In this document: positions 32,452-57,225 of the stretch, piece after piece
Numbering within the stretch: position 1 is the stretch's first letter
How the letters are laid out: the number at the start of each line of letters is the position of its first letter
Assembly: GCF_028747205.1 (NCBI RefSeq)
Contig: NZ_CP112880.1
Span: 4,650,001-4,714,000 of the forward strand
From: Streptomyces sp. CA-278952
Lineage (GTDB): Bacteria > Actinomycetota > Actinomycetes > Streptomycetales > Streptomycetaceae
DNA: 64,000 nucleotides
Direction: 5' to 3'
Translations under genes and position numbers: made by a program
The notes under the pieces: generated by a model
Databases searched by the model: none
Seen by the model: the letters and a program-made list of their open reading frames with translations, nothing else
What the model was told of the DNA's origin: nothing

Positions 32452-32503
32452 TAACGCGTTGTGCCCCCGGCAGGATTCGAACCTGCGACACCCGCTTTAG
32501 GAG
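32452..32503. repeat. attL: displaced 3' half of tRNA-Arg(CCT)
   Basis: Identical over 52 bp to 57143-57194. It contains the tRNA 3' part (32462-32503: acceptor strand, T arm, variable region, anticodon arm 3' strand) and breaks off inside the anticodon loop, so it cannot form a tRNA. It is the chromosomal fragment displaced when the element inserted. Confidence 0.93.
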
Positions 32504-32773: not shown

Positions 32774-35700
32774 ATGGTGGGGCGCGACGGAGCGGAACAG
32801 GTGGCCAGCCCGTACTCGACTGGTGGCGGTGGCACGGTCTTGGAGCACCGTTTCGGTGCTGTCCTACTGGCTCACCTTCTCCTAGGCGATCCAGTACCGG
32901 CTTTGGGCGACGAAGTGACGCCGGTGGAAGTGCGCTTTCAGGACAGTCATTTCAGTGCCGTAGACGACCTGATCGTCGTCGGCAACACAGCCGACGGAGC
33001 GCAGCGGCGGTTGTCGATCGGAGTGCGTAGGGCCCCGAGCTTCGTAACCAGCGACGATTCCACAGCGGATCTACTTGTGTCTTACCTGCGGGTTGTTACC
33101 GACCATTGGGACGAGGCCAGTACGGGACGCTGGCGCCTGGCAGTTGCAGTGGCCAGTCCCAATCCGGCCGTACAACAGGTGCGTGAGCTGGCTGTGATCG
33201 CTCATGGGCAGCCCGATGAGGAGTCGTTCCGCGCAGCCGTGGAACAGGCGGGACGTACGAGCAATGCTGTTCGCACGCGATTGACTCATCTGGATGCGTT
33301 GATCGCTAAGGCGGCTGCCAGCCCGAAGGTACGTACCGAGACACCTGACGCGGAGCTGACCTGGCGAGTCCTGCACGTGCTCTGGCTGTGGGAGCTGAGG
33401 CTGGAGGGAGTCGACGAGTCCGACCGCACAGCGGTCGTGGGGCGTCTGCGGGGTATCGTTCCCGACTCCTCCGTAGAGGATGCCGACGCACTGTTCGAAG
33501 TGCTGGGCAGGCTCTCTCAGGGGTACGCCCCGGCAGCGGCCACTGTCACCGAGAGCATGCTGCGAAGGCAGCTTTCCGGGGCCGCGGCTCTTGACCGCTC
33601 CCCGTCCTACCCCGCAGCGTGGCGTGTCCTCGACGCCTTGTCGGAGACGGCTGAGAATCTCGTACGGTTCCGGTTGACCGGCGCTGGCGAGAACCTTGAG
33701 TTGGAGCGCGTCGAGGCCGGAAGCGCCCTGGCTGCCGAAGCAAGAGCGGTCGCATCGCAGGCGACCGCACTGATCGTTCACGGTGAGCCTGATGCTGGCA
33801 AGTCGGCTCTGGCCTTGCGTACCGCCAGCCAGCTGCGAGCCGACGGGGTCGCAGTCACAGTGCTGAACCTGCGAGAGATTCCCGCGACCCTGGTGGAATT
33901 CGAGACGCTGCTCGGTGCCCGGCTCGCAGTGGTGCTCGGCGCCTCGGCGGTCGGTACGGGGCGCCTGCTGGTCGTTGATGGCGCGGAGTCGGTGCTGGAA
34001 GGCCGTGCCCGGTTGCTCTCCGACCTTGCACGGGCGGCCATGACCGCCGGGCTTGGCGTGGTGGCGGTAACCCGCACTGATGGTTCCGGAGCCGCACGTG
34101 ATGTCCTCATGCAGGCAGCGGAAAGTGTGGAGCGGCACGGCGAGGTCATCGAGAGCCTCGTTCGTGAGCATGAGGTCCCTCGGCTGACCTCGGTTGAGAT
34201 CACGCAGTTGGTTGAGGTCTTTCCGCAACTGCAGCGGTGGGCCAGTGACGAGCGGGCGCAGTGGTTGCTGGGCAGGCCAGGTCTGGTTGACATGTTGCTG
34301 CGTGCAGGTCCGAGCGTGGCGGCCCCTCAAGGAGTGGCGTCGGAGGCTGACCTGTTCGCCGCCGTCTGGGGGCACTTGGTGCGCCGCGGAGAGATGGTGG
34401 TGGCAGGAGGGCCCTCCCCTGACGCTCGTGATCAATCTCTTCGTGCACTGGCCAGGCGCCAGCTGCTTCCGCACGAGAACTCTGCGCCACCTGATTCAGC
34501 CGCGTTGCCTTCTCTGCGTTCCGACGGTTTGCTGGCGCCGCTGAACGCGACCAGTGCCTGGAACCGGTCCGATCGATTTGCCAGCGATCTCGTGCGAGAC
34601 ATGGCAATGGTGCGGCTGCTCGTCACGGACGGCTTCGATCTCCTCTCAGCTGCCGATGCGCCGCGCTGGGCGCTACGTGCCGCACGTGTCGCATGCCAGG
34701 CCCAGCTACTCACTACTGCTGACGTCAGGCGGTCACTTGCACACCTGCGTGCCGTCTTTGATCAGATCGCGGTTGACCACGGCGAGCGGTGGTCGGATGT
34801 GCCGTGGGAGGCAGTGCTCACCCTCGGTACAGCCGGCGAGGTCCTTGGCCGGGCATGGCCCGAGTTGCAGAAGGACCGGCAAGCCGGATTGCGTACAACG
34901 ATTCGGTTGGCCATGCAGCGCTACGCGTCCCATGACGTCGGCGACCCGGTGGTGCTTGCGCCGCTGGTCGAGTTGACCTTCTGCCGCGAACACGATGCCG
35001 ATTCCGATGACAGCTCCCGGGCTACCTATGACATGAGTCGCGCCATCCGCGAACTGGTGCTGGCCTGGCTGCGCGGGCTGGTGAGAGCTGAGGTGGGTGT
35101 ATCCATCCCGATTCGGCAGACGGTGAGGGACCGCATCCTCGCAGCCGAGCCAGAGCATTGGGACGAATTTGCTGTGGAAGCATTGGCACTGCTTGGCCCA
35201 GATCTCGATGGACGGGCCGAGGCGTTCCTCAGGGGAATTGCTGACGACGGTGGTGCACGTCTCGACCCTGTCGTGGAAAATTTCTGGCCCGTGACGGGCA
35301 TGGCTAGGCATCAGCCGGATCTGCTCTTGGTCTTTGCTGAGTCCTATTACATCGAACGATATGACTCCGAGGCGGCTAAATACGGCGGGTTTCGTTCGTA
35401 CCCGTTTGATGATGGCATCCGGCACCACCGTGCTCGTGGAGGCATCACTGAACGGATGGCAGGTTGGTACCGCGGCCCCTTCTGGCAGCTGCTGAAGGCC
35501 CGCACCGTGCCGACGCTGGCGTTGATTAATCGGATGCTCGACCACGCGGCGGCCATCCGGGTCGGAGACCGCGATAGCCACGTTCAGATTCCCGAAGATG
35601 AGCTGACCGGCGTGGATCTGGATCTGCTGGGGGTCGGTGTCAGGCACTGCGTCGGGGACGAACACGTATGGGCCTGGTATCGAGGGTCGTCAGTCGGCCC

Positions 35701-37786
35701 GTACCCGTGCATGAGTGCGCTGCTCGCGGTTGAGCGCCTCGCGGACCAGCTTGTGGCCATCGCTGATATTCCGATGGCTCGGGTCATGCAGTTGCTGTTG
35801 CGTGACTGCAACAACCTGGCCATGCCTGGCCTCGTGGTCGGGTTCCTTGTGCGGCATCTGGAGCAGGCGGGTGATCTGCTGGATCCTTGGATGCGGGATC
35901 CAGACGTATGGCATCTGGAATTCGCGCGAGTCGCTGGTGAAGGAGTGCTGTACGTACAAGGCCCGGACGAACCTGACCTTGTGGGGCGCTCTCGCCGTCG
36001 AAGTAATCTGCGTGACGTCGCCGCCGAACTCACCATCCGGGCGACCCTCTCCGGTGATCAGAACCGGCTGAACGAGCTCGCGGCCACAGGCGAGGAACTC
36101 ATCCGTCGTGCCGAGGAACTGGTCGCTGACTCCCAGGGCGGTGCGGATGCTGATCGGATGCTCACCTCAGTACGGGGGTGGGCGGCGACGTTCAGGCCGG
36201 AGGATTTTCATCCGGAAACTGATGAGTCTGGCAACTTGATCGTGCAGTATCAGCACCCCGAGCCGCTGGCGACTCGCATGCAGCCCGAAGCTGAGATGTT
36301 CGATCGTGCCGGCCAGGCGTTGCGCTTGCAGAACACCTACGCCAGATCCGCCGATCGCGTTGGCCCGGTTGACACTCTTCTGCCTGACATCGTCTTGGTG
36401 CGATCCCTGGGCGACGACCCACCCAATCCTGCTCTCAACCGCCTTGACCCGATTGCTGCCGTCGCTGCTGCCGCAGCCGTCGCACACGCCCGCGGACGGA
36501 TCCAGGTGCCGGTTGACGACTTGCGTTGGGCGACGGATGTCCTGATCGAGGCGATCGCCGAACCGAGTCGGGCTGAGTACGTCTCTTCTTCTTTCTACTC
36601 GGTGGGAGCTGATCGATCTGCGGCGACTGGACTGCCGGCACTCTTGGCCGTGGCATCTGACGACGTCGACCTTGATCGTCAGGCAATCATCGGCGCCTTG
36701 GACCGCTGCACCACGAACCACTTCGACGAGGTGCGCATCACGTTTGCCCTGGCTGTCGAACCTGTCTGGGACGCGCCGTGCGACGCTGACCAGCAGTCGA
36801 GCCCGTGCCGCCACCAAGCAGTGCTCAACGTCGTGCGGGCGGGACTGCAGGACTGTCGCCTTGGCGACTGGGACCCGACCACTGGTGTACTTGGCCGTCC
36901 CCGGCTCGACGGTCCTTACGAGCAGACGTTGCCCGAGGTCGAGACGGAGCGGCTCTATCTGACGTCACTGATTCCGCCACTTATTGCTGCCGGTTCAGCG
37001 TCCCTCAGCAACAGTTGTGTGGCAGATCAGGCGAACGGACTTGCTGAAGTCCTGCTTGACGCCCACGCCCGCGTTGCCGACCACTGGGCGAGGGAAGGGT
37101 ACGAGAACCGGCACAGCCGGCAGATCGCTCGCGTCATCGTTGCCCTGGCGCTCAGGGGTAACACCGAGCCGCTCAAAGCACATGTACGGCGCTTCGCTGC
37201 CAACGGTCGCGCCCTGCAGGATTTCCTCCATGACCTCACCGTGCTGTTCACCTATGACGATGACCTACGCCCGGCCCTTCTGGACATTTGGTCCGTCGTC
37301 ATGGAGACCGCCCTCGATGCCATCGGCGACGGCACTGAACTACGCACCGATCACCACTGGGGCGACTACGCATTGGGGGCACTACTACCTGCTCCCGAGA
37401 TCGACATGAGCGACACCGACATCGACGCGACCCTAGATCGCGCCCGAGAAGGCTGGCTACACCCCGACAGCCTCGCTGGCCTCGTGGATCGTTGGATAGG
37501 GATCGCCCGGCAGGAACCCAAGGCCCTCGACGCACTCGCGAAGCTTGGCAAGTGCGCTCCGCTGGAGTGGCAGCGAGGCAGGGGGCTCGACTTGGCGGAG
37601 CGATTGGTCGACGATAACTATGGCGCCATCGCCAACAAGTGCTGGTACGTCACCGACTGGCTCAAGACACTTCACTCACGCGATGAAATGTTGCCGGCCC
37701 ATATTGCACGGTGGCGACGCCTCGTCGACGGGTTGGCGGCAGCAGGTGACCACCGGGCAGCCAACTTGCAACTAATCGAAGAGTGA
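32774..37786 (+). CDS. giant STAND-type NTPase with nuclease-like N-terminus (candidate defence protein)
   Basis: 1,670 residues from ATG 32774; the frame is open further upstream but without a convincing start. Residues 20-160 (LEHRFGAVLLAHLLLGD, SAVDDLIVVGN, RRLSIGVRRAPS) follow the plan of a PD-(D/E)xK or Cap4-like domain. D64-D65 are present, but the usual E/Q-x-K reads G83-V84-R85, so catalysis is doubtful. The P-loop is GEPDAGKS (337-344) and the Walker B LLVVDGAES (D402). Some 1,200 helical residues follow with no recognised repeat, where Avs-like STAND proteins carry their sensor. GC is lower than in neighbours. It lies at the left edge of the island, convergent with a ParB-like pair. 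Confidence 0.72.
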   Translation: MVGRDGAEQVASPYSTGGGGTVLEHRFGAVLLAHLLLGDPVPALGDEVTPVEVRFQDSHFSAVDDLIVVGNTADGAQRRLSIGVRRAPSFVTSDDSTADLLVSYLRVVTDHWDEASTGRWRLAVAVASPNPAVQQVRELAVIAHGQPDEESFRAAVEQAGRTSNAVRTRLTHLDALIAKAAASPKVRTETPDAELTWRVLHVLWLWELRLEGVDESDRTAVVGRLRGIVPDSSVEDADALFEVLGRLSQGYAPAAATVTESMLRRQLSGAAALDRSPSYPAAWRVLDALSETAENLVRFRLTGAGENLELERVEAGSALAAEARAVASQATALIVHGEPDAGKSALALRTASQLRADGVAVTVLNLREIPATLVEFETLLGARLAVVLGASAVGTGRLLVVDGAESVLEGRARLLSDLARAAMTAGLGVVAVTRTDGSGAARDVLMQAAESVERHGEVIESLVREHEVPRLTSVEITQLVEVFPQLQRWASDERAQWLLGRPGLVDMLLRAGPSVAAPQGVASEADLFAAVWGHLVRRGEMVVAGGPSPDARDQSLRALARRQLLPHENSAPPDSAALPSLRSDGLLAPLNATSAWNRSDRFASDLVRDMAMVRLLVTDGFDLLSAADAPRWALRAARVACQAQLLTTADVRRSLAHLRAVFDQIAVDHGERWSDVPWEAVLTLGTAGEVLGRAWPELQKDRQAGLRTTIRLAMQRYASHDVGDPVVLAPLVELTFCREHDADSDDSSRATYDMSRAIRELVLAWLRGLVRAEVGVSIPIRQTVRDRILAAEPEHWDEFAVEALALLGPDLDGRAEAFLRGIADDGGARLDPVVENFWPVTGMARHQPDLLLVFAESYYIERYDSEAAKYGGFRSYPFDDGIRHHRARGGITERMAGWYRGPFWQLLKARTVPTLALINRMLDHAAAIRVGDRDSHVQIPEDELTGVDLDLLGVGVRHCVGDEHVWAWYRGSSVGPYPCMSALLAVERLADQLVAIADIPMARVMQLLLRDCNNLAMPGLVVGFLVRHLEQAGDLLDPWMRDPDVWHLEFARVAGEGVLYVQGPDEPDLVGRSRRRSNLRDVAAELTIRATLSGDQNRLNELAATGEELIRRAEELVADSQGGADADRMLTSVRGWAATFRPEDFHPETDESGNLIVQYQHPEPLATRMQPEAEMFDRAGQALRLQNTYARSADRVGPVDTLLPDIVLVRSLGDDPPNPALNRLDPIAAVAAAAAVAHARGRIQVPVDDLRWATDVLIEAIAEPSRAEYVSSSFYSVGADRSAATGLPALLAVASDDVDLDRQAIIGALDRCTTNHFDEVRITFALAVEPVWDAPCDADQQSSPCRHQAVLNVVRAGLQDCRLGDWDPTTGVLGRPRLDGPYEQTLPEVETERLYLTSLIPPLIAAGSASLSNSCVADQANGLAEVLLDAHARVADHWAREGYENRHSRQIARVIVALALRGNTEPLKAHVRRFAANGRALQDFLHDLTVLFTYDDDLRPALLDIWSVVMETALDAIGDGTELRTDHHWGDYALGALLPAPEIDMSDTDIDATLDRAREGWLHPDSLAGLVDRWIGIARQEPKALDALAKLGKCAPLEWQRGRGLDLAERLVDDNYGAIANKCWYVTDWLKTLHSRDEMLPAHIARWRRLVDGLAAAGDHRAANLQLIEE

Positions 37787-37975: not shown

Positions 37976-38782
37976 TCAGAACGGCTCTCGGGATTCTGTG
38001 GCTAGCCGACCAGAACGCCGCCCTGAATTATATGCATCCCGAACCACTCTGGCGATCCCCTCCACCACGGTGCCTCCGGTGACCTGCTTGTAGCCCCGTC
38101 CTTTACCAAGGAGACTTGCAGGGCCACCGGGAAGCTTGGAAAGCTTGCGCACCAGTGCATCAGAGTCGAGGAAAGGGAACTCGTAAAGCACAGAGGCTAC
38201 CCCGAGAAGCACGTAGCTGTTCCCTGCGGCGGGGATATGTCCCCAGGAGTCAGTGACGACCCGCAAGGTCCGCCTCAGTAGCTGCCCTTTCTCTGTCGAC
38301 TTTCCGTAGATCTTGCGGAGCGCTGCAACTGCGATGATTGCGTTGCCAGCCCCGGAATCTGAGACGATCCAACCGAGGTCTCGCGCAGTGCGCGTGATAT
38401 CGAGAGACTCGCCGTGTCCGGCGGTAACTTCGGCCATGAACTTATACAAGGGTTGTACGCGCCGATTGTCGTTGAGGCCGAGGAAAAGCTCTGCTTCCTG
38501 TTCCTTGGTGAGGCCGCGGAATACCTTCATTCCGATCTTTGTTTCTCCGTGGTCTGCGGCGACGCACAGAGCTCCTCGATTCTGCCCGTCGAGCCAAATG
38601 TATGTGCCGTTTGATCGGGCGGACACTTGAGGAACTCCAAGGCGTCCCAAGTCGAAGCCTTCCCTGAGCTTACGCGCCACCCAGGCCGTGTCCACGGGGC
38701 GAGTGTTCACAGCTCGGTCCGTCGTTACCTGACTGGGTACGAGCAACTCGATTTCGACAGCATGCTGGGTTCGGCTACTCAT
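37976..38782 (-). CDS. ParB/DGQHR-like protein (DUF6551 type)
   Basis: 268 residues from ATG 38782. The first 110 residues resemble the ParB/Srx fold of DUF6551 and DndB-like proteins: VARKLREGFDLGRLGVPQVSARSNGTYIWLDGQNRGALCVAADHG, where LDGQNR takes the place of DGQHR. Then GLTKEQEAELFLGLNDNRRVQPLYKF, the usual follow-up helix. The C-terminal half is helical (ALVRKLSKLPGGPASLLGKGRGYKQ). The start overlaps the stop of the upstream ParB gene by eight bases. The family binds nucleotides or DNA in plasmids, phages and DNA-modification loci; the role here is unknown. Confidence 0.7.
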   Translation of the reverse strand: MSSRTQHAVEIELLVPSQVTTDRAVNTRPVDTAWVARKLREGFDLGRLGVPQVSARSNGTYIWLDGQNRGALCVAADHGETKIGMKVFRGLTKEQEAELFLGLNDNRRVQPLYKFMAEVTAGHGESLDITRTARDLGWIVSDSGAGNAIIAVAALRKIYGKSTEKGQLLRRTLRVVTDSWGHIPAAGNSYVLLGVASVLYEFPFLDSDALVRKLSKLPGGPASLLGKGRGYKQVTGGTVVEGIARVVRDAYNSGRRSGRLATESREPF

Positions 38783-39722
38783 TGCGCATCTTCTCCATCT
38801 TTTTTACGTACGTGTGCGACATTCGGCGGGCATCCTTAAGCGCCTTGAGCATGTATGCGAAATGCTCGGAGGTTGCCAGGTCGTCTGTTACGACATCAGA
38901 CAACCCTTCTAGCGTTCCAATAACTACATCGGCGGTTCGGACATAGTCGTATTCCCTCCGGTGGGAGCGAGCCTTGGGGAGGGAGCTACTGGCAATGCGG
39001 GCACTGGTTGAGCCAGCTTCGTGCACCCTCGGCTTACCGCCTAGGTATGGGAAGCAGGATTCCAGCGTGTCGGGGCAGATTCCCTGCAGGAGTAGCTGGT
39101 GCAATTTCGCGAGCACGGACACCAGGGGGTAGTCAAGGCCGGGTTTTTCGACTGCTTCCACCATGAGAGAGAGCGATCTCTCGGCCGTTCCTGCAGAGTC
39201 GGGGGTGGTCATCTCCCTCTCTGCTTTCCGGAGGGTGGAGCGAAGCACCTTGTACACCTTGGTGGGGAGGCCCACAGCGGCAGCGGCTGAAACTTCTCGC
39301 CGGAATCCTTCGTCGGCGCCACTGGGTGGTGGAAGCCGATGCAAGTTGAAGGCAGCCGTCACTCTTTCCGTTACGGTCATAGGGAGTGAGTAGAGTGGGT
39401 CTGGATTTTCGATATGCTGCCGCAGCTCCAGGGCGCCTTCTTCGATATCCTTGGCGAAGATGGCGGCCACGAAGTGCATATGGGCCTGCTTGCTCGCCTC
39501 GAATCTCCTATTTCCGCTCAATAGGAAGTGGTCCTTCTCGGCGACGAGTAGGGGCTCCTTCAAGCCGGAAGTCCTGATGGACGAGGCCAGGCCGTCAAGG
39601 TCTCGGATTCTTTCGGTAGGGGATTTCGTGATTCTAATATCGGAAAGTCTGATCTTCGCAAGCTCCAACGCTTTCCTCTTCTCGGGCTTGGTGGCGTTCG
39701 TCCGGAGGGGACGGGTGTGCAA
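38775..39722 (-). CDS. ParB N-terminal domain protein
   Basis: 315 residues if started at TTG 39722; TTG 39668, with GAGGAAAG just upstream, is an attractive alternative and would begin at LELAKI. The N-terminal ParB/Srx domain reads ELAKIRLSDIRITKSPTERIRDLDGLASSIRTSGLKEPLLVAEKDHFLLSGNRRFEASKQ (the GxRR-type motif is SGNRRFEA). The C-terminal part is helical and not recognised. No ParA accompanies it, so chromosome partitioning is unlikely. Coupled to the next gene. Low GC marks it as a recent acquisition. Confidence 0.75.
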   Translation of the reverse strand: MHTRPLRTNATKPEKRKALELAKIRLSDIRITKSPTERIRDLDGLASSIRTSGLKEPLLVAEKDHFLLSGNRRFEASKQAHMHFVAAIFAKDIEEGALELRQHIENPDPLYSLPMTVTERVTAAFNLHRLPPPSGADEGFRREVSAAAAVGLPTKVYKVLRSTLRKAEREMTTPDSAGTAERSLSLMVEAVEKPGLDYPLVSVLAKLHQLLLQGICPDTLESCFPYLGGKPRVHEAGSTSARIASSSLPKARSHRREYDYVRTADVVIGTLEGLSDVVTDDLATSEHFAYMLKALKDARRMSHTYVKKMEKMRNE

Positions 39723-40027: not shown

Positions 40028-40681
40028 ATGCCGCACAGGACTGATGTCGCCGACAGGCGCGGCCTGATCCTCGACTTCGCCGGGGTGCTTACCGCCAGCC
40101 CGATCGATATCCACCGCGCCTGGTGCGTGTCGGAAGGGCTGGCTCCGGGCGCATGGCGCAGCACTCTCAACGATCACCCTGAGGGCCGGCGTCTGTACGA
40201 GGCTCTGGAGATCGGGGAGATCGGGCAGGCCGAGTGGAACGAGGGCACGGCCGCGCTGTTGGGTGCGCACGTGGATCCGGTGAACCTGATGGGGCGGGCC
40301 TGGGCCCGGGTGCCTGTGGCCCGTCGGATGGTCGCGCTCGCGCGTGCCGCGCGTGCCTCCGGCCACCGGCTTGCGCTGCTGTCCAACAGCTTCGGCCTCG
40401 ACCCGTTCAACCCGTACGAACACGTCGGCATCTGGGACCTGTTCGACGTGCACGTCGTCTCCGAGCTGGTCGGCATGGCGAAGCCCGATCCGGCGATCTA
40501 CGAACTCGCCCTGGAGCGGATCGGACTGCCTGCCGAGCGGTGCGTATTCGTGGACGATCACGCGGTGAACCTTCCGCCGGCCGCCGATCTGGGCATCGCC
40601 ACGGTCCACGTCACGGACGAGGATGAGGCCGTGACAGAGCTGGAGGCCCTCCTTGGTGTCACGGCGGTGCTCGCCGCGTGA
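40028..40681 (+). CDS. HAD-superfamily hydrolase
   Basis: 217 residues from ATG 40028, GGGAAGGA upstream. HAD-IA plan: motif I LILDFAGVLTA (nucleophile Asp; the second acid is replaced by Ala as in the DFGGV subgroup), motif II LALLSNSFG, motif III MAKPDPAIYELALERIGL with Lys, and motif IV CVFVDDHAVNL. Probably a phosphatase or dehalogenase-type enzyme for a small substrate. It precedes the XRE gene by 89 bp and may serve the glycosyl operon. Confidence 0.85.
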   Translation: MPHRTDVADRRGLILDFAGVLTASPIDIHRAWCVSEGLAPGAWRSTLNDHPEGRRLYEALEIGEIGQAEWNEGTAALLGAHVDPVNLMGRAWARVPVARRMVALARAARASGHRLALLSNSFGLDPFNPYEHVGIWDLFDVHVVSELVGMAKPDPAIYELALERIGLPAERCVFVDDHAVNLPPAADLGIATVHVTDEDEAVTELEALLGVTAVLAA

Positions 40682-40770
40682 ACCCAAGTGCGCTCTGATC
40701 AAAGGCTGTCGGCTCCACCGCTCCAGCCAGTACTGTCCGTGTGGGGTCCATCACGCGGAGGTTCTGGAGC

Positions 40771-41973
40771 ATGCAGTGGTCGGAGTACACCACCTCTGAG
40801 CGCTTGAAGGCGCTGCGCGGTGGCATGACACAGGAGCAGTTGGCGGAGGCGGCCGGCGTGTCCTTCGGCGTGGTGCGCAAGCTCGAACGCGGCGGGACGG
40901 CTTCCCTGCCGTCCTTGCTGTCGATCGCCGACGCGCTCGGTACGGACATCGCCGTGCTCCTCGGGCAGCAGGCGCCACGGCGGTCCATGGACCGCGACGA
41001 GCGGGCTGCGTTGCGCCTGGTCTCCGCAGCCACTCATGACGCGGCCATCGGCATCCCCGCCGAGGTCGAGCCGGGCACCGTCGAAGAGCTCCGCGCCGTC
41101 GTCCGTCGTGCGGACGCCGCGTACTGGGGAGGCCGGTACACCGAGCTCGGTACTCTCCTTGGGGGGCTCCTTCCCGAGGCGCGGGCCAGGTTCGACACGG
41201 CCGGCCTCGATGAGCGGGAGGCCGCCGCCGGCGTCTTGGTCGACACCTTTCAGACGGCGGGCATGGCCGCCAACGTGCTCGGATCACGAGATCTGGCGTA
41301 TGCGGCGCTGACGTACGGACGCCAGATCGCCGTGCAGGGCGGAGATGATCTCCGTGAAGCGCACCTTGCCGCGACCACCGCGTGGGTCAACCTCCGCGAC
41401 GGCCGGACCAAGCAGGGCTTCCTCCTTGCCGTAGCACAAGCCGACCGGATCGAGCCCAAGATGAGCGAGCACGACCCGGACCGGCTGAGTGTGTACGGGC
41501 AGCTCGTCACGAACGCCGCCGTCGCCGCGTCCCGGGGCGGTGCGAACTCGGACAACGCCCGTGAATACCTCTCGCAGGCGCATGCCGTCGCTGCCCGCAT
41601 CGGGGACGAGCATGCCCGTGGCGCGCACGCCCAGCCGTACGGACCGATGTACGCCGCAACGCAGGCCATGAGTATCGCCGTAGCCCTCGGCGATACGGCT
41701 GGAGCGCTGCGGCTCATGGACACCGTTCGCCTGGACGACACGGTGCCCCTGGCCACTCGGGCCCGCTACGGCCTGGACGTAGCGCTCACCCAGGTCGAAT
41801 GCCGTCGGTGGGAGGCCGCAGCCGACACCCTCCAGGCCGTCTGCGCGATGGCCCCGGGATGGGTGCGTCACCAGATGCTTCCCGGCGTCATCATCAGTCG
41901 ACTCGCCGGGGTGTCCGTCAACCGACTGCGAGGACTGGCGAACTCCGCGGGCGTACCCCTCGGAGTGCGTTGA
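40771..41973 (+). CDS. XRE regulator with TPR-like C-terminus
   Basis: 400 residues from ATG 40771 (GGAG four bases upstream). HTH in the first 65 residues (TSERLKALRGGMTQEQLAEAAGVSFGVVRKLERGGTASLPSLLSIADALGTDIAVLL), then a helical, TPR-like sensor domain as in many Streptomyces cluster-linked regulators. It is the probable pathway regulator of the downstream operon 42168-47927. Inducer unknown. Confidence 0.85.
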   Translation: MQWSEYTTSERLKALRGGMTQEQLAEAAGVSFGVVRKLERGGTASLPSLLSIADALGTDIAVLLGQQAPRRSMDRDERAALRLVSAATHDAAIGIPAEVEPGTVEELRAVVRRADAAYWGGRYTELGTLLGGLLPEARARFDTAGLDEREAAAGVLVDTFQTAGMAANVLGSRDLAYAALTYGRQIAVQGGDDLREAHLAATTAWVNLRDGRTKQGFLLAVAQADRIEPKMSEHDPDRLSVYGQLVTNAAVAASRGGANSDNAREYLSQAHAVAARIGDEHARGAHAQPYGPMYAATQAMSIAVALGDTAGALRLMDTVRLDDTVPLATRARYGLDVALTQVECRRWEAAADTLQAVCAMAPGWVRHQMLPGVIISRLAGVSVNRLRGLANSAGVPLGVR

Positions 41974-42167
41974 CCTACGAGCCGAAGTACCACGGCCCGT
42001 AGTAGGTACGGACGCGCCATCAGCGCGACTGCTACGGGGCGTGGCACACCTTCGGGCGACCCTGCTTCCGCTGCCACGCGGCGTGGCGGTCCGACCGGAT
42101 ACGGAGTCTCTCCACTGCGACGAGCCGTGCCTGGGCCCCGACTCCGCAGCCCAGCAGCCTTGTGGGC

Positions 42168-42614
42168 ATGCCGATCAACCCGCCCGGCGGCCTCGGGCAC
42201 GTACCCGTCGCCGTCTACTCCTGCGCCACCACCTCCACCGCCCTCGGTGAGAGCGAGGAGCGTGGCCGCTACTACGCCGAGGCCCGGCACTGGCACGTCG
42301 CCGGCGTCTGGTCCGACCCCGCCCCGTCGCTGCCGCTCATGGAGCGGCCGGGCTGGCAGGCCGTCACGGCCGCCCTGTCCGCCGGAATGATCCGAGGTGT
42401 CGTCGTCAGCGGCCTGACGCATGTCGCCGCCGACGCCGCCCAGTTCGCGGCTCTCGGCGTTCTCCTCCGCGACCGGGGAGGGTTCCTCGCGGACGCGTCG
42501 AGCGGCACCCCGACCCGTCGAACCCCCGGCCAGGCCCGTCGTCGCCGCGACATCGCGGACGCGGCCTCCGGCTGGTTCACGCAGACAGGCACGTACGAGG
42601 AGGACGGCTCGTGA
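42168..42614 (+). CDS. small resolvase-fold-like protein, operon leader gene
   Basis: 148 residues from ATG 42168 (GTG 42162 possible). VPVAVYSCATTSTALGESEERGRYYAEARHWHVAGVWSDPAPSLPLMERPGWQAVTAALSAGMIRGVVVSGLTHVA resembles the alpha/beta fold of serine-recombinase N-domains, without the catalytic Ser-Arg pattern. Role unknown. Its stop overlaps the GTG of the next gene. Confidence 0.6.
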   Translation: MPINPPGGLGHVPVAVYSCATTSTALGESEERGRYYAEARHWHVAGVWSDPAPSLPLMERPGWQAVTAALSAGMIRGVVVSGLTHVAADAAQFAALGVLLRDRGGFLADASSGTPTRRTPGQARRRRDIADAASGWFTQTGTYEEDGS

Positions 42615-42805
42615 GCGCCCGGCGCGCCTGGGTCGGCGACCTCGTCCGGGACGGCGGCGGACGGCGGGCGATCGTCACCGACGTCCGCGCCGGCGGCACC
42701 GTGTGGGTGCTGCGGCCGCCGACCGGCGGTGGCCCCCACTGGGAGACCGACGACCCCGACAGCCTCGAAATCCTCGCCCGCTCCGAAGCCAGGGATACGC
42801 CGTGA
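42611..42805 (+). CDS. small conserved-type hypothetical protein
   Basis: 64 residues, GTG start in a GTGA overlap. Beta-rich SH3-like sequence WVGDLVRDGGGRRAIVTDVRAGGTVWVLRPPTGGG. The stop again overlaps the next start (GTGA). Position in a tight operon supports translation. Function unknown. Confidence 0.6.
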   Translation: MSARRAWVGDLVRDGGGRRAIVTDVRAGGTVWVLRPPTGGGPHWETDDPDSLEILARSEARDTP

Positions 42806-43758
42806 GCGACCGCGCTGGCTGCCGACCCTTCCGTCACGCCCGTGCACCACGCCTGAAAGGCGAAGTCCCCGTGTACGCGTTCGGCCTCTGCATCGACCAG
42901 CAATACCTCGTCCCCGGCCTCGCCGCCCTCGCTGGCCTGGCCGACAGCCTCACCCCGGCCGCCCGCCGCGAAGCTGCCGTACGGGTGCTCACCCTCGACC
43001 TGACCCCGTCGCAGGCCCTCCTCCTCGCCGACCTCGCCAAGCGGGCCGGCGTCGGCTCCTTCGACCTCCGTCAATGCGCCCCTCTGCGCTCCTCGCGCAT
43101 GGCAGACGCCTCGTACATCACCGTCACGACCTATCTGAGGTTCGAGTTCACGCCGAGCTTCGTCCGCCGTCCCTACCTGATCTACGTGGACGCCGACGTA
43201 CTCGTACGCGGAGACGTGAGCGAGCCGCTCGGCTCCCTCGCGCCGGACGAGACGGGCGCCGTGCGGGACGAGTTCAACCCGACCGTCGGCGAGTGCCCGG
43301 CGCTGCCCGGAGCCGCCGAGCGCTGGCCCCACCTGCGCGGACGCCCGTACTTCAACGCCGGCGTGCTCTGGGCCCACACCGATCACATGTCCCGCATCCG
43401 CCGAGGCGTCGAGCAGGCCCTGATCCACGCCCGGCGCCACATCCTCCACAACGACCAGGACGCCCTGAACCTGTGGCTTCTGCGATCCGGCCGAGTGCGC
43501 CCGGTGTCCGGTGGTTTCAACCGGTTCGAGGTCGGCCGATTCCTGGAACGCGGGAACTGGGTGCGCCGGGTCGTCACACGGTCGCCGAAGCCCGATCCGG
43601 CTGCCGCCCTCGTGCACTTCGTCGGTCCCGAGAAGCCGTGGCAGGCCGACTGCCCCGTCACGGAGGAAGTCGTCGAATACCGGCGGCACCTGGAAAGGGC
43701 CATGCGTCACGTCCGGCGTCTGGGTGCCGTCGGCGTGGAACCGGCGGGTGGGCGGTGA
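42802..43758 (+). CDS. glycosyltransferase, GT8-like
   Basis: 318 residues from GTG 42802 in an overlap; GTG 42871 (VYAFGLCIDQQYLVPGLAAL) is an alternative that trims a basic leader. Catalytic D-x-D in YLIYVDADVLVRGD, then YFNAGVLWAHTD and HNDQDALNLWLL (the Q-D of GT8), and VHFVGPEKPW near the end. It should transfer a sugar from a nucleotide donor with retention of configuration. Acceptor unknown. Confidence 0.83.
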   Translation: MSDRAGCRPFRHARAPRLKGEVPVYAFGLCIDQQYLVPGLAALAGLADSLTPAARREAAVRVLTLDLTPSQALLLADLAKRAGVGSFDLRQCAPLRSSRMADASYITVTTYLRFEFTPSFVRRPYLIYVDADVLVRGDVSEPLGSLAPDETGAVRDEFNPTVGECPALPGAAERWPHLRGRPYFNAGVLWAHTDHMSRIRRGVEQALIHARRHILHNDQDALNLWLLRSGRVRPVSGGFNRFEVGRFLERGNWVRRVVTRSPKPDPAAALVHFVGPEKPWQADCPVTEEVVEYRRHLERAMRHVRRLGAVGVEPAGGR

Positions 43759-44633
43759 GTGCGGGGGTACCGCCCGCTGTCTCGCGCGCTGCCCTCGCCC
43801 TGACCGGGGTACCGGCCCGCACCGCCCGCCGGCTGTCCGCACGTACGCGCACCGTCGTGTACCGGGCGGGCCTGGCCGACGGACGCGGTGTCGTGATCAA
43901 GCTGTACGCGGCGACCGCACGCCGCAACGCGATCACGGAGAGCGCTGCCATCCGGGCCGTGGCCGATCACGTCCCCGTACCGGCCCTCATCGGATACGGG
44001 CACGTTCCAGGCCACGAGGCGACCGCCCTCGTCACCGCCGACCTCGGCCCGCTCACCCTCGGCTGCGCCATGCGCTCCGGCCGGATCTCCGACGAGCGAG
44101 CTCTGAAAGACCTGGCCGGCCTGCTCGGCCGCCTGCACCGGGCCCCCGTCCGGCCGTCGGCCCCGCGCCGGCCGCTCCACGAGCAGGTCACCTCACTGGG
44201 CCGCCGCTGCCCGCCCAGCAACCTCGACCGCATCGCGCCCGCGCTGGCCGCCATCGCCGACGCCGTCCACACAGCGCCCGTGTGGTGCCACGGCGACCTC
44301 CACGGCGACAACGTCGTGATCGCCGGCCCCCGAGCCATCCGTCACCTGATCGACTTCACCGACGCCGCGGCCGGTCCCCGCGAATCCGACGTCGCCCAGA
44401 CCCTCGTCATGACCGGCGCCCTCTCGACTCTCCGGGCCCGCACGGTCACCGACGCCTACCCCCTTGCCCTCGATCGCCACCTGTTGGGCGCCTGGGTCAT
44501 CCTCCACACCCTGCGCTCCTGGGCGCATTCCTCCCCAGGCGACGACCGCGCCTTGTGGGCCCGCCGCCTGGACGACCTCAGCCGACGGACCCCGCACTTC
44601 TTCCGTACGCGCCGCCCGGAAAGGACGCGCTGA
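43755..44633 (+). CDS. APH-fold small-molecule kinase
   Basis: 292 residues from GTG 43755 (GTGA overlap). VYRAGLADGRGVVIKLYAA gives the ATP lysine, VWCHGDLHGDNVVI the catalytic loop, and HLIDFTDAAAGPRESDVAQ the metal-binding Asp. In a glycosyl operon it could phosphorylate a sugar intermediate or give self-protection against an aminoglycoside-like product. Coupled to the next gene by TGATG. Confidence 0.85.
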   Translation: MSAGVPPAVSRAALALTGVPARTARRLSARTRTVVYRAGLADGRGVVIKLYAATARRNAITESAAIRAVADHVPVPALIGYGHVPGHEATALVTADLGPLTLGCAMRSGRISDERALKDLAGLLGRLHRAPVRPSAPRRPLHEQVTSLGRRCPPSNLDRIAPALAAIADAVHTAPVWCHGDLHGDNVVIAGPRAIRHLIDFTDAAAGPRESDVAQTLVMTGALSTLRARTVTDAYPLALDRHLLGAWVILHTLRSWAHSSPGDDRALWARRLDDLSRRTPHFFRTRRPERTR

Positions 44634-45364
44634 TGAGCACCCCCGCCCTGTCGGTAGTGATCCCGGCCTTTAACGAGGCCGCCTACCTGCCCCGCTACCT
44701 GCCCTCCGTCCTCGCCTCACTCACCCGCTGGGAGGAGATCACCGGCCGTACGGGAGAGGTGATCGTCGTCGACAACGCCAGCACCGACGCCACCGCCGAC
44801 ATGGCCTCCTCCTTCGGTGTCCGAGTCGTCACCGAGTCCGTCCACAACATCGGCCGGGTCCGCAACACAGGAGCGGCAGCCGCCCGCGGTGGCCGGCTCA
44901 TCTTCACCGACGCGGACGTGGCTCTGCCCCTGGAGGCGGTCACCGCTGCTGCTGCCGCCATGGACGCCGGGGCCGTCGGCGGCGCCATCCCGCCGCTCTA
45001 CACCCCGGAACGGCTCGGCGCCCGCCTGCTGTGCGCCTACTGGGACCACTACCGCACCCGGCGCGGCGGGGCCCAGGGCGTCAACCAGTTCTGCACCACC
45101 GACGCCTTCCACCACATCGGTGGGTACCGGGACGACCTGTTCATGAGCGAGGACGTGGAGTTCTTCGCCCGCCTCACCGCCCACGGCCAGGCCACCGACC
45201 GGCCCGCGACCATCCTCGACGAACTGCGCGTGCGCCCGTCGACCCGCCGCTACGACCAGTGGTCGAGCCTGCGGATGCTCTGGTGGCAGAACCCCGTGAC
45301 CGCCCGCCTGCGCCTCCGGTCGCCCCGCATGTGGCGCCACTGGTACGAGACGACCGTGCGATGA
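44633..45364 (+). CDS. glycosyltransferase family 2
   Basis: 243 residues from ATG 44633. SVVIPAFNEAAYLPRYLPSVL, VIVVDNASTDATADMA, RVRNTGAAAARGGRLIFTDADVALP (D-x-D) and MSEDVEFFARL (E-D) are the GT2 elements. A soluble inverting transferase. It overlaps the PIG-L gene as ATGA. Confidence 0.92.
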   Translation: MSTPALSVVIPAFNEAAYLPRYLPSVLASLTRWEEITGRTGEVIVVDNASTDATADMASSFGVRVVTESVHNIGRVRNTGAAAARGGRLIFTDADVALPLEAVTAAAAAMDAGAVGGAIPPLYTPERLGARLLCAYWDHYRTRRGGAQGVNQFCTTDAFHHIGGYRDDLFMSEDVEFFARLTAHGQATDRPATILDELRVRPSTRRYDQWSSLRMLWWQNPVTARLRLRSPRMWRHWYETTVR

Positions 45365-46281
45365 CGAAGGAGACTCCTGTGCAGCCCCAGCCCCAGCCCT
45401 TGGTCGACCTGCCAGTGCCGGACGGGCACGGCATCTACACCTTCCCCGACGACCTCCACCGCGCCCACCAGACGCACACCCAGCAGCTCGCCGCCCGCCA
45501 CCGGAACGACGACCACCGCGTCCTAGAGGTGACCGCACCCCACGCCCGCGTCCCGTACTACATCGAGGCGCGCACCCCCGTCGGCCGCCCGGTCCTCGCC
45601 ATCGAACCCCATCACGACGACTTCGCCCTCTCGGCCTCGGGCACCTTCCTCGCCCGCCCCCGACCGCTGACCGTGGCCACCGTCTTCACCCGGTCCCGGA
45701 GCGTGCACCCCGCCCTGGAGGTCACGTACGCCGACGTCGACACCGTGTCCGAGCTGCGCGACCGGGAGGGTACCGCCGCGCTCGCGCCGTTCGTCGCCCG
45801 CCGACACCTCCTCGGCCACAAGGACGCCGAGCCCCCGTACCGTCCCTACAACCCCCAGGTGCTCGACCAGATCACCGAGGAAGTCCGCCGGATCACCGCG
45901 GCCCACCCCGGCGCCGAACTCCTCGCCCCCGCCGCCGTCACCCGCCACCCCGACCACCTCCTCGTCCATGAGGCCGCCGTTCGCCTCGGCTGCACCTGGT
46001 TCTGGGAGGACCTAGCGTTCTGGTCGACGTACGCGCTCGTCGGCTGCGACCAGCACCTGTTCCGTACACGTACGGGGGCGACGATGCGGCCCGAGCTGGT
46101 CGACATCACCGACGCCGTTCTGGACAAGGTCACCGTCCTGCGGATGCACGGCTCGCAGATGCATCCAGCGCGGAAGATGTACCGGCCGATCCGGCACGCC
46201 TTCACCACGGCGGCCGACCTCGTCGACGGGCCCGGCCTCTATGCCGAACGCTTCTACCGAACGGAGGAGCCGACGTGCTGA
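45361..46281 (+). CDS. PIG-L-family deacetylase
   Basis: 306 residues from ATG 45361. VLAIEPHHDDFALSASGTF carries the zinc motif (x-H-x-D-D), and AVTRHPDHLLVHEAAVRLG the second His motif. PIG-L enzymes remove N-acetyl groups from GlcNAc conjugates (MshB, BtrD, GPI anchors). This makes an amino sugar the probable intermediate of the pathway. Confidence 0.88.
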   Translation: MTKETPVQPQPQPLVDLPVPDGHGIYTFPDDLHRAHQTHTQQLAARHRNDDHRVLEVTAPHARVPYYIEARTPVGRPVLAIEPHHDDFALSASGTFLARPRPLTVATVFTRSRSVHPALEVTYADVDTVSELRDREGTAALAPFVARRHLLGHKDAEPPYRPYNPQVLDQITEEVRRITAAHPGAELLAPAAVTRHPDHLLVHEAAVRLGCTWFWEDLAFWSTYALVGCDQHLFRTRTGATMRPELVDITDAVLDKVTVLRMHGSQMHPARKMYRPIRHAFTTAADLVDGPGLYAERFYRTEEPTC

Positions 46282-46889
46282 TCATCGCCCTGGAAGGTCC
46301 CTCCTACGCAGGCAAGTCCACGGCGATACGCCACCTCCGCCAGACCGCCCTCGGCTCGCGGGCGTTCGTCTCGGACTGCTACGTCAGGCACATCGCCCAC
46401 CGCGACGACATCCCTCCGGCCCAGACCGACTCGGCGGCTGCCCAACTCGCCGCCTTCGAGAGGTTCATGGAGGTCGAGGCGACCCGCGTCGCCGAGGCCG
46501 TCGCGAGCGGCAGGCAGTTCGTCATCCTCGACCGGTCCGTGGACACCCTCCTCGCCCACGCATACGCCCTGGACGCCCTGTTCGGGTACGGCGTCCACCA
46601 CCAGCTCCGCGACCGGCTCAGGACGCTCCCGTTCCTGCGCCCGGACCACACCCTCTACCTCGACGTACCGGCGGAGACGCTCCACCTCCGCCGCAAGACC
46701 GCCGGCCACACCGCCGCCGAGTCCGAATACTTCCTCCACGAGCCGGGCTTCCTCCGCCATGCCCGCGACTACTTCGTCCACACACCCCGTCGGCCCGTGA
46801 CGCGAGAGCTCACGGTCCTGGCCGCCGATGCGGGGCCGGACGATGTGGCCCAGGCCGTGGAAGCCCTCGTCACCTTCCTGGCGAGGTGA
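46275..46889 (+). CDS. thymidylate-kinase-like P-loop kinase
   Basis: 204 residues, GTG 46275, seven-base overlap with the PIG-L gene. Walker A EGPSYAGKST (7-16), FVILDRSVDTLLAHAYALD corresponds to the DRY/DRS region of dTMP kinases, and LYLDVPAETLHLRRK to the LID lead. TMK-like proteins in clusters can activate nucleotides or phosphorylate sugars. Exact substrate unknown. Confidence 0.82.
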   Translation: MLIIALEGPSYAGKSTAIRHLRQTALGSRAFVSDCYVRHIAHRDDIPPAQTDSAAAQLAAFERFMEVEATRVAEAVASGRQFVILDRSVDTLLAHAYALDALFGYGVHHQLRDRLRTLPFLRPDHTLYLDVPAETLHLRRKTAGHTAAESEYFLHEPGFLRHARDYFVHTPRRPVTRELTVLAADAGPDDVAQAVEALVTFLAR

Positions 46890-46895
46890 AAGAAG

Positions 46896-47927
46896 ATGCC
46901 CACCGCCCTGTTCGCCTGGCGTCGCACCCCGCCCCCGTTCCTCATCGGCGGCGCCGAGGTCACCCAGCAGCTCCTCGCGGAGGAACTCGCCGCCGCCGGC
47001 TGGCACGTCACCTACCTCGGCTCACACGAGGCGCCCTGGGACGGGGTCACCCAGCTCACCGACATGTGCGCCCACCTCGACAGGCACTGCGTCGCGTACG
47101 ACGAGGCGGACGGCACCCTGCGCTACCGGTGGAACGGGGTCGAGTGCGCGGCGTTCATGCAGAACAACGTGGAGCACGCGCTGGGCAGCCTGCTGGGAGA
47201 CCTCAGCCCCGATGTCGTGTTCACCTCGCAGGAAGGCTCGGCGCAGCTCGCCGCGCAGGCCAGACCGACCGCGCTCGTCGCCGGCCTCCTGCACTCCGTT
47301 TCCGCCACTGGCCTGGAGGTCCTCGTCGGCCGACCCCACTACGGCCTCGCCGTGTCGGGTTTCGTCCAGGCACGCGCACCCCACACGCCTGGCACCCGCC
47401 TCGCCGTGATGTACCCGCCGTTCGCGCTGCCCGGGGAGGGCTCGGGCGAGGCCCGCACCGCGTCCGTACTCATGGTCAACCCCATCCCCGCCAAGGGATC
47501 CGAGCTACTGCACCAGCTCATCCGTCTCATGCCAGAACAGCACTTCACCTTGGTCGAAGGCTGGTGGGACACGGCCGCCGGCTTCGCCGCTTACCCGAAC
47601 GTGACGTACGTGCCCCGCGTGTACGACATGAGGCCTCTGTACCGCAGCCATCTCCTGCTGCTGGTCCCGTCTACCGTGGAAGATGCCTTCCCCCGCGTGA
47701 TCGTCGAGGCCGCGCTCCACGGCGTCCCGAGCATCGGGGTCGACCGGGGCGGCATCCCCGAAGCCATCGGCGACGCGGGAATCGTCCTGCCGAGCACAGC
47801 CGGCCCCGAGACGTGGGCACGCGCGATCCGGGAGGCGGACCACGAGGCGCTGGGCATGAGGGCCCGGCGTCAGGCGGTCACGTTCACGCGACCGTGCCTG
47901 CCCGAGCTCCGGGAGCTGGGGATCTAG
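46896..47927 (+). CDS. glycosyltransferase family 4
   Basis: 343 residues. GT-B fold: N-terminal GGAEVTQQLLAEELAAAGWHVTYLGSHE, C-terminal VLMVNPIPAKGSELLHQLIRLMP and PSTVEDAFPRVIVEAALHGVPSIGVDRGGIPEAIGDAGIVLP with the E-x7-E donor motif. Third transferase of the operon; six bases follow the kinase stop. Its last four bases overlap the oppositely oriented kinase at 47924. Confidence 0.9.
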   Translation: MPTALFAWRRTPPPFLIGGAEVTQQLLAEELAAAGWHVTYLGSHEAPWDGVTQLTDMCAHLDRHCVAYDEADGTLRYRWNGVECAAFMQNNVEHALGSLLGDLSPDVVFTSQEGSAQLAAQARPTALVAGLLHSVSATGLEVLVGRPHYGLAVSGFVQARAPHTPGTRLAVMYPPFALPGEGSGEARTASVLMVNPIPAKGSELLHQLIRLMPEQHFTLVEGWWDTAAGFAAYPNVTYVPRVYDMRPLYRSHLLLLVPSTVEDAFPRVIVEAALHGVPSIGVDRGGIPEAIGDAGIVLPSTAGPETWARAIREADHEALGMRARRQAVTFTRPCLPELRELGI

Positions 47928-50823: not shown

Positions 50824-51444
50824 TCACCGCCCTGAGGTCACCTGAGCGACGGCCACGTCCACATCGGCGATCGACGCTTCGACCCGGTCCAGCAGCTCTT
50901 GCACGGGGTCCAGTGCGGGCCACGCGCCGTCCTTGTTGAGGTGCCATGCGAGCTGGTTGAGATTGCCGCCGATCTTGCCGAGCTGCCCGTTGGCCGCCAT
51001 CAGCGCCTTGACCATGGCCCGGTAGTCGGCCACCGAGGCGGTGGGATCATCCGCGCGGGCGGCGGCCAGCGAGGTCTCGGCGACATAGCCGCCGACTGGC
51101 ATGCGGCTGAGGGCGGCGGCGTTCGCGAGGAGGGCGAACTCGTCGTCGCTGTAGCGGGGGTGGACGCGCTTCTCGCGCAGCGTGGATTCGCGAAGGCGGC
51201 GGCGCGGCGTGGGCGGCTGTGGGGCTTTTCCCCGAGTCGGCTCCCCCGGGCCAGCCACCTCCGGCGCCCCCTCGGAGCCGGACGCCTCCGCCTCCCCTGG
51301 GGCGGAGGCCGGGTAAGGACTCCTTACCCGACAACTTGCTCCGTCGGAAGCAGCCCGTCCGAATGCCTGCCGCACACGTTCCGTCAGCACAGGCGACTTT
51401 GGCGACGGTATCTGTTCATTGGAGTGGTGCGGCTCGTGCATCAT
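50824..51444 (-). CDS. MobC-type relaxosome accessory protein
   Basis: 206 residues, tandem ATG at 51444/51441. Pro/Ser-rich leader, then a basic RREST-LREKRVHPRYSDDEFALLANAAALSRMPVGGYVAETSL ribbon-helix-helix-like region and KALMAANGQLGKIGGNLNQLAWHLN, the MobC signature. It binds near oriT and helps the relaxase. Operon with the relaxase. Confidence 0.9.
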   Translation of the reverse strand: MMHEPHHSNEQIPSPKSPVLTERVRQAFGRAASDGASCRVRSPYPASAPGEAEASGSEGAPEVAGPGEPTRGKAPQPPTPRRRLRESTLREKRVHPRYSDDEFALLANAAALSRMPVGGYVAETSLAAARADDPTASVADYRAMVKALMAANGQLGKIGGNLNQLAWHLNKDGAWPALDPVQELLDRVEASIADVDVAVAQVTSGR

Positions 51445-57142: not shown

Positions 57143-57194
57143 TAACGCGTTGTGCCCCCGGCAGGATTCGAACCTGCGACACCCGCTTTAGGAG
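57143..57194. repeat. attR core (52-bp direct repeat)
   Basis: Identical to 32452-32503. It supplies the 3' half of the functional tRNA-Arg gene and ten bases beyond it. Confidence 0.93.
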
Positions 57195-57225
57195 AGCGGT
57201 GCTCTATCCCCTGAGCTACGAAGGC
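57153..57225 (-). tRNA. tRNA-Arg (anticodon CCT)
   Basis: 73 bases, no encoded CCA. Acceptor GCCTTCG pairs with CGGGGGC (two G-U pairs), D arm GCTCAGGGGATAGAGC, anticodon arm CCGCT-CTCCTAA-AGCGG (anticodon CCT, reads AGG), T arm GCAGG-TTCGAAT-CCTGC. The 3' half is element-derived; the gene is intact and should function. Confidence 0.97.

What the first reader, a model, noticed from the sequence alone, without database searches (positions are those of the whole stretch)
32774..37786. 1,670-residue STAND protein with degenerate nuclease-like head at the island edge
P-loop (337-344) and Walker B (D402) are clear, and the long C-terminus has the size of the sensor region in Avs-like antiphage STANDs. 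The head has the VDD of a PD-(D/E)xK domain but GVR in place of the catalytic E/Q-x-K, so the effector may work without cleavage or may be new. Its location in a mobile element beside a tRNA fits a defence cargo.
Basis: partly seen in the sequence, partly recalled or inferred. Interest (0 to 1): 0.75.

Follow-up and report, generated by a model that had tools for sequence, protein, structure and literature searches.

The report
Avs4-like phage sensor, altered nuclease head
A Streptomyces mobile island carries a large single-gene protein that closely resembles the bacterial anti-phage sensor Avs4, but its DNA-cutting-type head has an arginine where such enzymes normally have a lysine, and this arginine did not change in any relative compared.

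Summary
Confirmed: 32774-37786 (+) is an intact 1,670-residue STAND protein, 271 bp inside the attL of a ~24.7-kb island in tRNA-Arg(CCT). NTPase and sensor are Avs4-like: solved Avs4 is the only PDB profile hit under 1e-3 for the family, and the predicted body matches Avs4 at 7e-21 by Foldseek (next 2e-5). The head is predicted (mean pLDDT 88) as a Cap4/DUF4297-type nuclease fold, nearest Avs3, LmuA and Cap4; no sequence-profile link was found. The missing E/Q-x-K is not decay of one gene: Gln56, Asp64, Asp65 and Arg85 are present in every head scored, never Lys at 85, and the head is under purifying selection. On the same body the head is replaced by trypsin-like protease, a Mrr-like nuclease (by motif) with Q-x-K, or a phosphorylase; it also sits on other scaffolds. 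So it fills an effector slot. No shared partner gene was found. PADLOC recognises part of the family as candidate PDC-M54A. Best reading: an Avs4-like anti-phage sensor with a Lys-to-Arg variant of the Cap4-fold effector. Whether the head cuts DNA, only binds it, or does other chemistry is open; nothing functional was tested.

The parts
32459..32503 (+). attL core: copy of the 3' part of tRNA-Arg(CCT), 45 nt, identical to 57150-57194
   Evidence: the surrounding 140 nt are 85% alike
32774..37786 (+). 1,670-aa Avs4-like STAND protein (P0001)
32795..33583 (+). head, residues 8-270: Cap4/DUF4297-type nuclease fold (effector slot)
   Evidence: portable domain
32939..32941 (+). Gln56, just after the first core strand
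   Evidence: 171/171, 78/78
32963..32968 (+). Asp64-Asp65, just before the second core strand (local model confidence is lower here)
   Evidence: 171/171 each, 78/78 each
33020..33028 (+). Gly83-Val84-Arg85 at the end of the third core strand, in the place of (E/Q)-x-K
   Evidence: Arg85 173/173, 78/78; strand 77-85 in the model
33782..33805 (+). P-loop GEPDAGKS, residues 337-344
33965..33988 (+). Walker B LLVVDGAE, residues 398-405
35468..35848 (+). sensor segment (residues 899-1025) collinear with Avs4, with W-x-x-YRG-x-x-V-x-x-Y-x-x-S-x-x-x-A-x-E
36779..37018 (+). Cys1336, Cys1345, His1347, Cys1415: nearly invariant set, possible metal site in the sensor (inference)
   Evidence: 187/187, 187/188, 187/187, 186/186 of proteins with a residue
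54799..57105 (+). frame holding the island's tyrosine integrase (PF00589 at residues 523-689 of the frame)
50824..51444 (-). NikA/MobC-type mobilisation protein of the island
57152..57225 (-). intact tRNA-Arg(CCT) at the far end (attR side)

Best explanation
This is a single-gene anti-phage STAND (NLR-like) sensor of the Avs4 kind, carried as cargo at the tip of a mobilisable tRNA-Arg island. The long C-terminal helical region most likely recognises a conserved phage protein (by analogy with Avs4, the portal). That would drive ATP-dependent assembly through the NTPase and bring the N-terminal heads together. The head has the Cap4-type nuclease fold with a Gln-Asp-Asp...Arg site in place of Asp...(Glu/Gln)-x-Lys, and acts on DNA, most likely by cleavage with Arg85 replacing the lysine, less likely by non-cleaving binding, leading to abortive infection. 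Shown by computation: architecture, relation of the body to Avs4, predicted fold of the head, invariance of the altered site among the sequences compared, effector exchange, mobile setting. Inferred: phage sensing, portal as ligand, oligomerisation, DNA as target.
Confidence: 0.75

Rival explanations
1. The non-cleaving half of the best reading, taken alone: same Avs4-like sensor, but the head is nuclease-dead; oligomerised heads clamp DNA and block phage or host DNA metabolism without cleavage. (Overlaps with the best explanation; the confidences are not meant to sum to one.)
For: Position 83 is Gly/Ala and the lysine is absent in all 78 heads scored; no head column has Lys in more than 20%. 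Conserved Arg85, Arg86, Arg167, Arg169, Arg198 and Arg264 would suit DNA binding.
Against: Asp64 and Asp65 are as constant as Arg85, which mere DNA binding would not need. The best structural neighbours are nucleases.
Confidence: 0.3
2. The head keeps the nuclease fold but does other chemistry or acts on another substrate (for example a nucleotide or RNA).
For: The other heads on this body include a protease and a phosphorylase domain, so the slot is not reserved for nucleases. The Q-D-D-R set equals no nuclease motif that I recall.
Against: Closest folds are DNA-directed (passages of PMC11291478 for DUF4297, SeAvs3 and EcCap4).
Confidence: 0.15
3. The head is not the effector but an adaptor that recruits a separate effector.
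For: The head also sits on a protein with the PIN domain of the TPR-GreAB-C-PIN system (L070) and on PQQ beta-propellers without a recognised NTPase. Kaur et al. describe such adaptor domains (EADs; PMC7159879, PMC8195603, passages).
Against: EADs come with a further copy, often on an adjacent gene; none of the 79 stretches with a head match held a second one, the own genome gave one match, and no neighbour was widely shared in 72 loci. The same slot is taken by enzymes elsewhere.
Confidence: 0.12
4. The gene is not antiviral: it serves island maintenance or guards against rival elements.
For: It sits at the attL tip, and beside the same tRNA core in S. purpureus.
Against: Nearest solved protein is anti-phage Avs4; relatives also lie on plasmids.
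Confidence: 0.1

Closest known systems
Avs4 (AVAST type 4; solved structure 8dgf, bound to a phage portal)
   Same: Order head-NTPase-long sensor; sequence profile and fold of NTPase plus sensor; W-x-x-YRG-x-x-V-x-x-Y-x-x-S-x-x-x-A-x-E in the sensor.
   Different: About 13% identity; the matched NTPase of Avs4 begins near residue 195-216 and here near 300-313, so the head is larger; Lys of the nuclease motif replaced by Arg. The nuclease subfamily of the Avs4 head was not compared. Portal recognition not tested.
Avs3 nuclease head (8dgc), LmuA, Cap4, HerA-DUF4297
   Different: In 73 Cap4 proteins of one actinobacterial group S-V-K is conserved in at least 90%; here it is G/A-x-R. No sequence-profile match.
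PADLOC PDC-M54A (candidate defence protein; 'phage defence candidate' is recalled)
   Same: P0001 matches model PDLC04702 at 3.5e-8 over residues 20-488, head included; 10 of 26 members match, best 1.3e-16.
   Different: No paper in the searched library holds 'PDC-M54'. P0001 matches only model positions 20-483 of 1,621.
Conflict-system effector slots of Kaur et al. 2020/2021 (TPR-GreAB-C-PIN; trypsin with Trypco2)
   Same: The head sits on a protein with the PIN domain of the TPR-GreAB-C-PIN system. Two trypsin-headed relatives have a Trypco2-type gene upstream: L073 (annotated) and L081 (tblastn 7e-7).
   Different: tblastn did not list L013 or L021 as having it. No passage I saw names this head. 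Their main systems are multi-gene; this one appears single-gene.

Membership tests
STAND NTPases | P-loop NTPase with Walker A/B and the NLR-like fold | tested here: met
Avs4 | homologous NTPase and C-terminal sensor | tested here: met
   8dgf 2.4e-7 by profile, 7.4e-21 by Foldseek
Avs4 | match to the PADLOC Avs4 model | tested here: inconclusive
   P0001 0.0078; 10 of 26 family members match, best 8.7e-10; model cut-offs not given
Avs4 | recognition of the phage portal protein | not testable with these tools
   needs co-expression or binding assay
Avs4 | PD-(D/E)xK nuclease effector at the N-terminus | tested here: inconclusive
   Nuclease fold predicted and Asp kept, but (E/Q)-x-K is G/A-x-R in the heads scored
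Cap4/DUF4297-type nuclease | fold | tested here: met
   predicted model
Cap4/DUF4297-type nuclease | D...(E/Q/S)-x-K catalytic motif | tested here: not met
   Lys 0 of 173 and 0 of 78 at position 85
Cap4/DUF4297-type nuclease | sequence-profile relationship | tested here: not met
   hhalign of A2 with 73 of 80 Cap4 relatives, all collected from one query: probability 1, not over the motif; no Cap4 Pfam hit for P0001
EAD adaptor domains (Kaur et al.) | further copy of the domain on an adjacent effector gene | tested here: not met
   0 of 79 head-bearing stretches held a second head (a number of them have flanks shorter than 10 kb); one match in the own genome
Integrated mobile element of actinomycetes | tRNA-derived direct repeats, integrase, transfer or mobilisation genes | tested here: met
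   (NikA/MobC, DUF2637, DUF3631, integrase)

The most novel reading that the evidence does not exclude
The head is a new catalytic class within the restriction-endonuclease fold: a Gln-Asp-Asp/Arg site in which an arginine, constant across the family, has replaced the lysine and the acidic partner of the E-x-K pair has been lost, used as the effector of an Avs4-like sensor and shared with at least three other scaffolds (NPHP3_N-type STAND, PQQ beta-propeller, TPR-GreAB-C-PIN).
Probability: 0.35. Interest if true: 0.75.

Novelty: new variant of a known kind. Interest (0 to 1): 0.55.

Why it matters
Avs1-4 are reported to kill by nuclease activity (passage of PMC12931631). Here a large, mostly actinobacterial family keeps the Avs4-type sensor and the Cap4-type fold but has a consistently altered active site, while relatives with the same body carry a Mrr-like head with Q-x-K, a protease or a phosphorylase. 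That is a natural swap series for asking what a fixed sensor needs from its effector, and whether a PD-(D/E)xK fold can work with Arg for Lys or by binding alone. It also suggests Avs4-like immunity in Streptomyces; I saw no description of that in the listings (one search listed 20 of 9,881, mostly unrelated), and subscription papers are largely not held.

Tried and rejected
Decayed head: rejected. Q56, D64, D65 and R85 are present in every head with a residue there, and head dN/dS is 0.11-0.20 against five relatives, within or below the 0.13-0.33 of the other regions. From I first read L077 and L078 as having Cys at 85; the profile alignment puts Cys at 84 and Arg at 85, so that reading, still in a notebook entry, was wrong.

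A catalytic lysine elsewhere in the head: rejected, no head column has Lys above 20%. E24 as an essential residue: not upheld, 166/166 in the close set but Ala in 10 and Gly in 3 of 76 in the wider set.

Partner gene: the two downstream genes (DUF6551 and ParB_N, 37976-39722, -) give no PADLOC hit. No neighbour is widely shared in 72 loci (own included); the largest cluster is a tyrosine integrase in 10 loci. A number of these loci have short flanks, and some carry the head on another body.

Sequence link of head to Cap4: negative (the Cap4 set is narrow). PDB profile search with the head: 0 hits up to E 10. IMG/VR: 12 stretches matched a pattern, none confirmed. No match in 50,697 phage records.

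Mobile-context control: five bait proteins hit 21 of 71 family loci and 0 of 20 arbitrary 20-kb stretches of Streptomyces genomes. The baits came from five of the family loci and the controls are Streptomyces only, so this is indicative (16 of 66 without the bait loci). Of 16 Streptomycetaceae family loci 5 were hit.

Limits of the surveys: the genus search scored 2 candidates per genome, and of the 12 positives 6 match in head and body, 3 in the head alone and 3 in the body alone. The head profile in 296 actinobacterial genomes matched 4, own included, with 8 candidates scored per genome, so absence is not shown. PF14130 matched 3 of 119 genomes. The locus scan kept the best 80 of 91 relatives as 71 loci. 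Pfam scans of head-bearing proteins on other bodies covered 8 of 14 such loci. The 180-of-194 share of this head is biased, as one of the two searches started from it; they listed 120 of 283 and 120 of 205 hits.

VIA and Foldseek lists also hold unrelated folds at low scores; families not listed are not excluded.

Full report
What is there. The frame at 32774-37786 (+) encodes an intact 1,670-residue protein. The window is part of an 8.2-Mb single-contig genome, where this is the only match found. The nearest named relative is a 98% identical Streptomyces cinereoruber protein. The gene starts 271 bp after a 45-nt copy of the 3' part of tRNA-Arg(CCT) at 32459-32503; the intact tRNA-Arg is at 57152-57225 (-). 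Between them lie a tyrosine integrase next to the intact tRNA and NikA/MobC-type, DUF2637 and DUF3631 genes, which fits a mobilisable or conjugative tRNA island of about 24.7 kb. In Streptomyces purpureus (L002) a 97.6% identical stretch begins at the same tRNA core and ends with this gene; no other stretch over 150 bp of the 31-58 kb region matches that 25-kb locus. This suggests that the gene travels as cargo at the tip of elements using this site; an island end in L002 was not looked for beyond the locus, and no whole tRNA was found in it.

The altered site. In the 180 proteins with the head, Gln56, Asp64 and Asp65 are each 171 of 171 and Arg85 is 173 of 173 among those with a residue there. 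In 79 head matches read from fetched loci (75 distinct sequences, own locus three times), all four are 78 of 78, and position 83 is Gly 40, Ala 38. Lys never occurs at 85 in these sets, and no head column has Lys above 20%. By contrast S-V-K is conserved at 90% or more in the 73 Cap4 proteins. Head dN/dS against five relatives is 0.11-0.20; other regions give 0.13-0.33. This is a stable variant, not decay.

Effector slot. Of the 194 collected proteins, 14 lack this head: 8 have a trypsin-like protease (PF13365), 2 a head with the motif G-E-(A/S)-D-G-G-R-D...(Y/F)-Q-V-K, 2 a PF01048 domain, and 2 are truncated. The QVK head is called Mrr-like from my reading of its motif; Pfam and PADLOC did not name it in L041. 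Two of the eight trypsin proteins correspond to loci L013 and L021 (Pfam); L073 is a further trypsin-headed locus by Pfam and L081 by my reading. L079 and L080 have only a short N-terminus. A Trypco2-type gene lies upstream in L073 (annotated) and L081 (tblastn 7e-7), as described for trypsin components by Kaur et al. 2020 (PMC7159879, passages); tblastn did not list L013 or L021, although L021 has a short upstream frame that looks similar to me. Conversely, 14 of 71 loci carry the head on another body. Of the 8 scanned, three have NPHP3_N-type NTPase hits (1.3e-6 to 1.8e-3, one above its cut-off), two PQQ beta-propellers, one TPR plus the PIN domain of the TPR-GreAB-C-PIN system, and two no Pfam hit. 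Kaur et al. 2021 report that this last system takes one of 13 effector domains at its N-terminus (PMC8195603, passages). In one lineage a MarR/TrmB-like helix-turn-helix precedes the head (L019, L022, weak Pfam hits); 25 of 157 proteins whose head is complete at its start have 75 or more residues in front of it.

Spread and setting. Within Streptomyces 12 of 199 genomes, own included, have a match at 1e-30 or better. The plasmid collection has 13 records with a match, 4 over at least 80% of the query. No partner gene is widely shared in 72 loci. Relatives of five recombinase, relaxase or transposase baits lie in 21 of 71 family loci and in 0 of 20 control stretches, with the bias stated under Tried and rejected.

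How it most likely works. Following Avs biology (Avs1-4 use nuclease heads and sense terminase, portal or Ksap1: passage of PMC12931631; SeAvs3 tetramerises on binding and pairs its heads: passages of PMC11291478), the sensor would bind a phage protein, most likely portal, the NTPase would drive assembly, and paired heads would act on DNA. Every functional step is inference. Between cleavage with Arg85, binding only, and other chemistry I give roughly 50:30:20 within the antiviral reading.

Known or new. The architecture is of a known kind. PADLOC already holds a candidate model, PDC-M54A, that matches part of the family, and no paper in the searched library names it. I saw no description of Avs4-like proteins in Streptomyces or of this head in the search listings. 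I rate it a new variant of a known kind.

Noticed in passing
window 37976-39722 (-): Two overlapping genes, DUF6551 and a ParB_N-domain protein, form a lower-GC unit (about 0.58) directly downstream of the STAND gene; no PADLOC match.
   Followed up: partly
window 40028-49009: Island cargo partly of carbohydrate type: HAD hydrolase, glycosyltransferases (GT8, group 1), PIG-L domain, small kinase-like protein (weak PDC-M51B hit 4.9e-5) and an APH-fold phosphotransferase.
   Followed up: partly
L079, L080: Same STAND body with no large head, only a short N-terminus with VQHGNQTINNF; may recruit a separate effector.
   Followed up: no
L019, L022, L012 and other relatives near 1,750 aa: A MarR/TrmB-like helix-turn-helix (weak Pfam hits in L019 and L022) is fused in front of the head; 25 of 157 proteins have such an extension by length.
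   Followed up: partly
L063, L064; plasmid NZ_CP120993.1: The same head on proteins with a PQQ-type beta-propeller (by Pfam in L063 and L064, by annotation in the plasmid) without a recognised NTPase, so the head may be controlled without a STAND switch.
   Followed up: no
window 36779-37018 (residues 1336, 1345, 1347, 1415): Nearly invariant Cys-Cys-His-Cys set in the sensor, possible zinc site.
   Followed up: partly
L048, L049; L035: In L048 and L049 the family protein is split over two frames; L035 is a second, shorter relative (962 aa) on the contig of L013.
   Followed up: no
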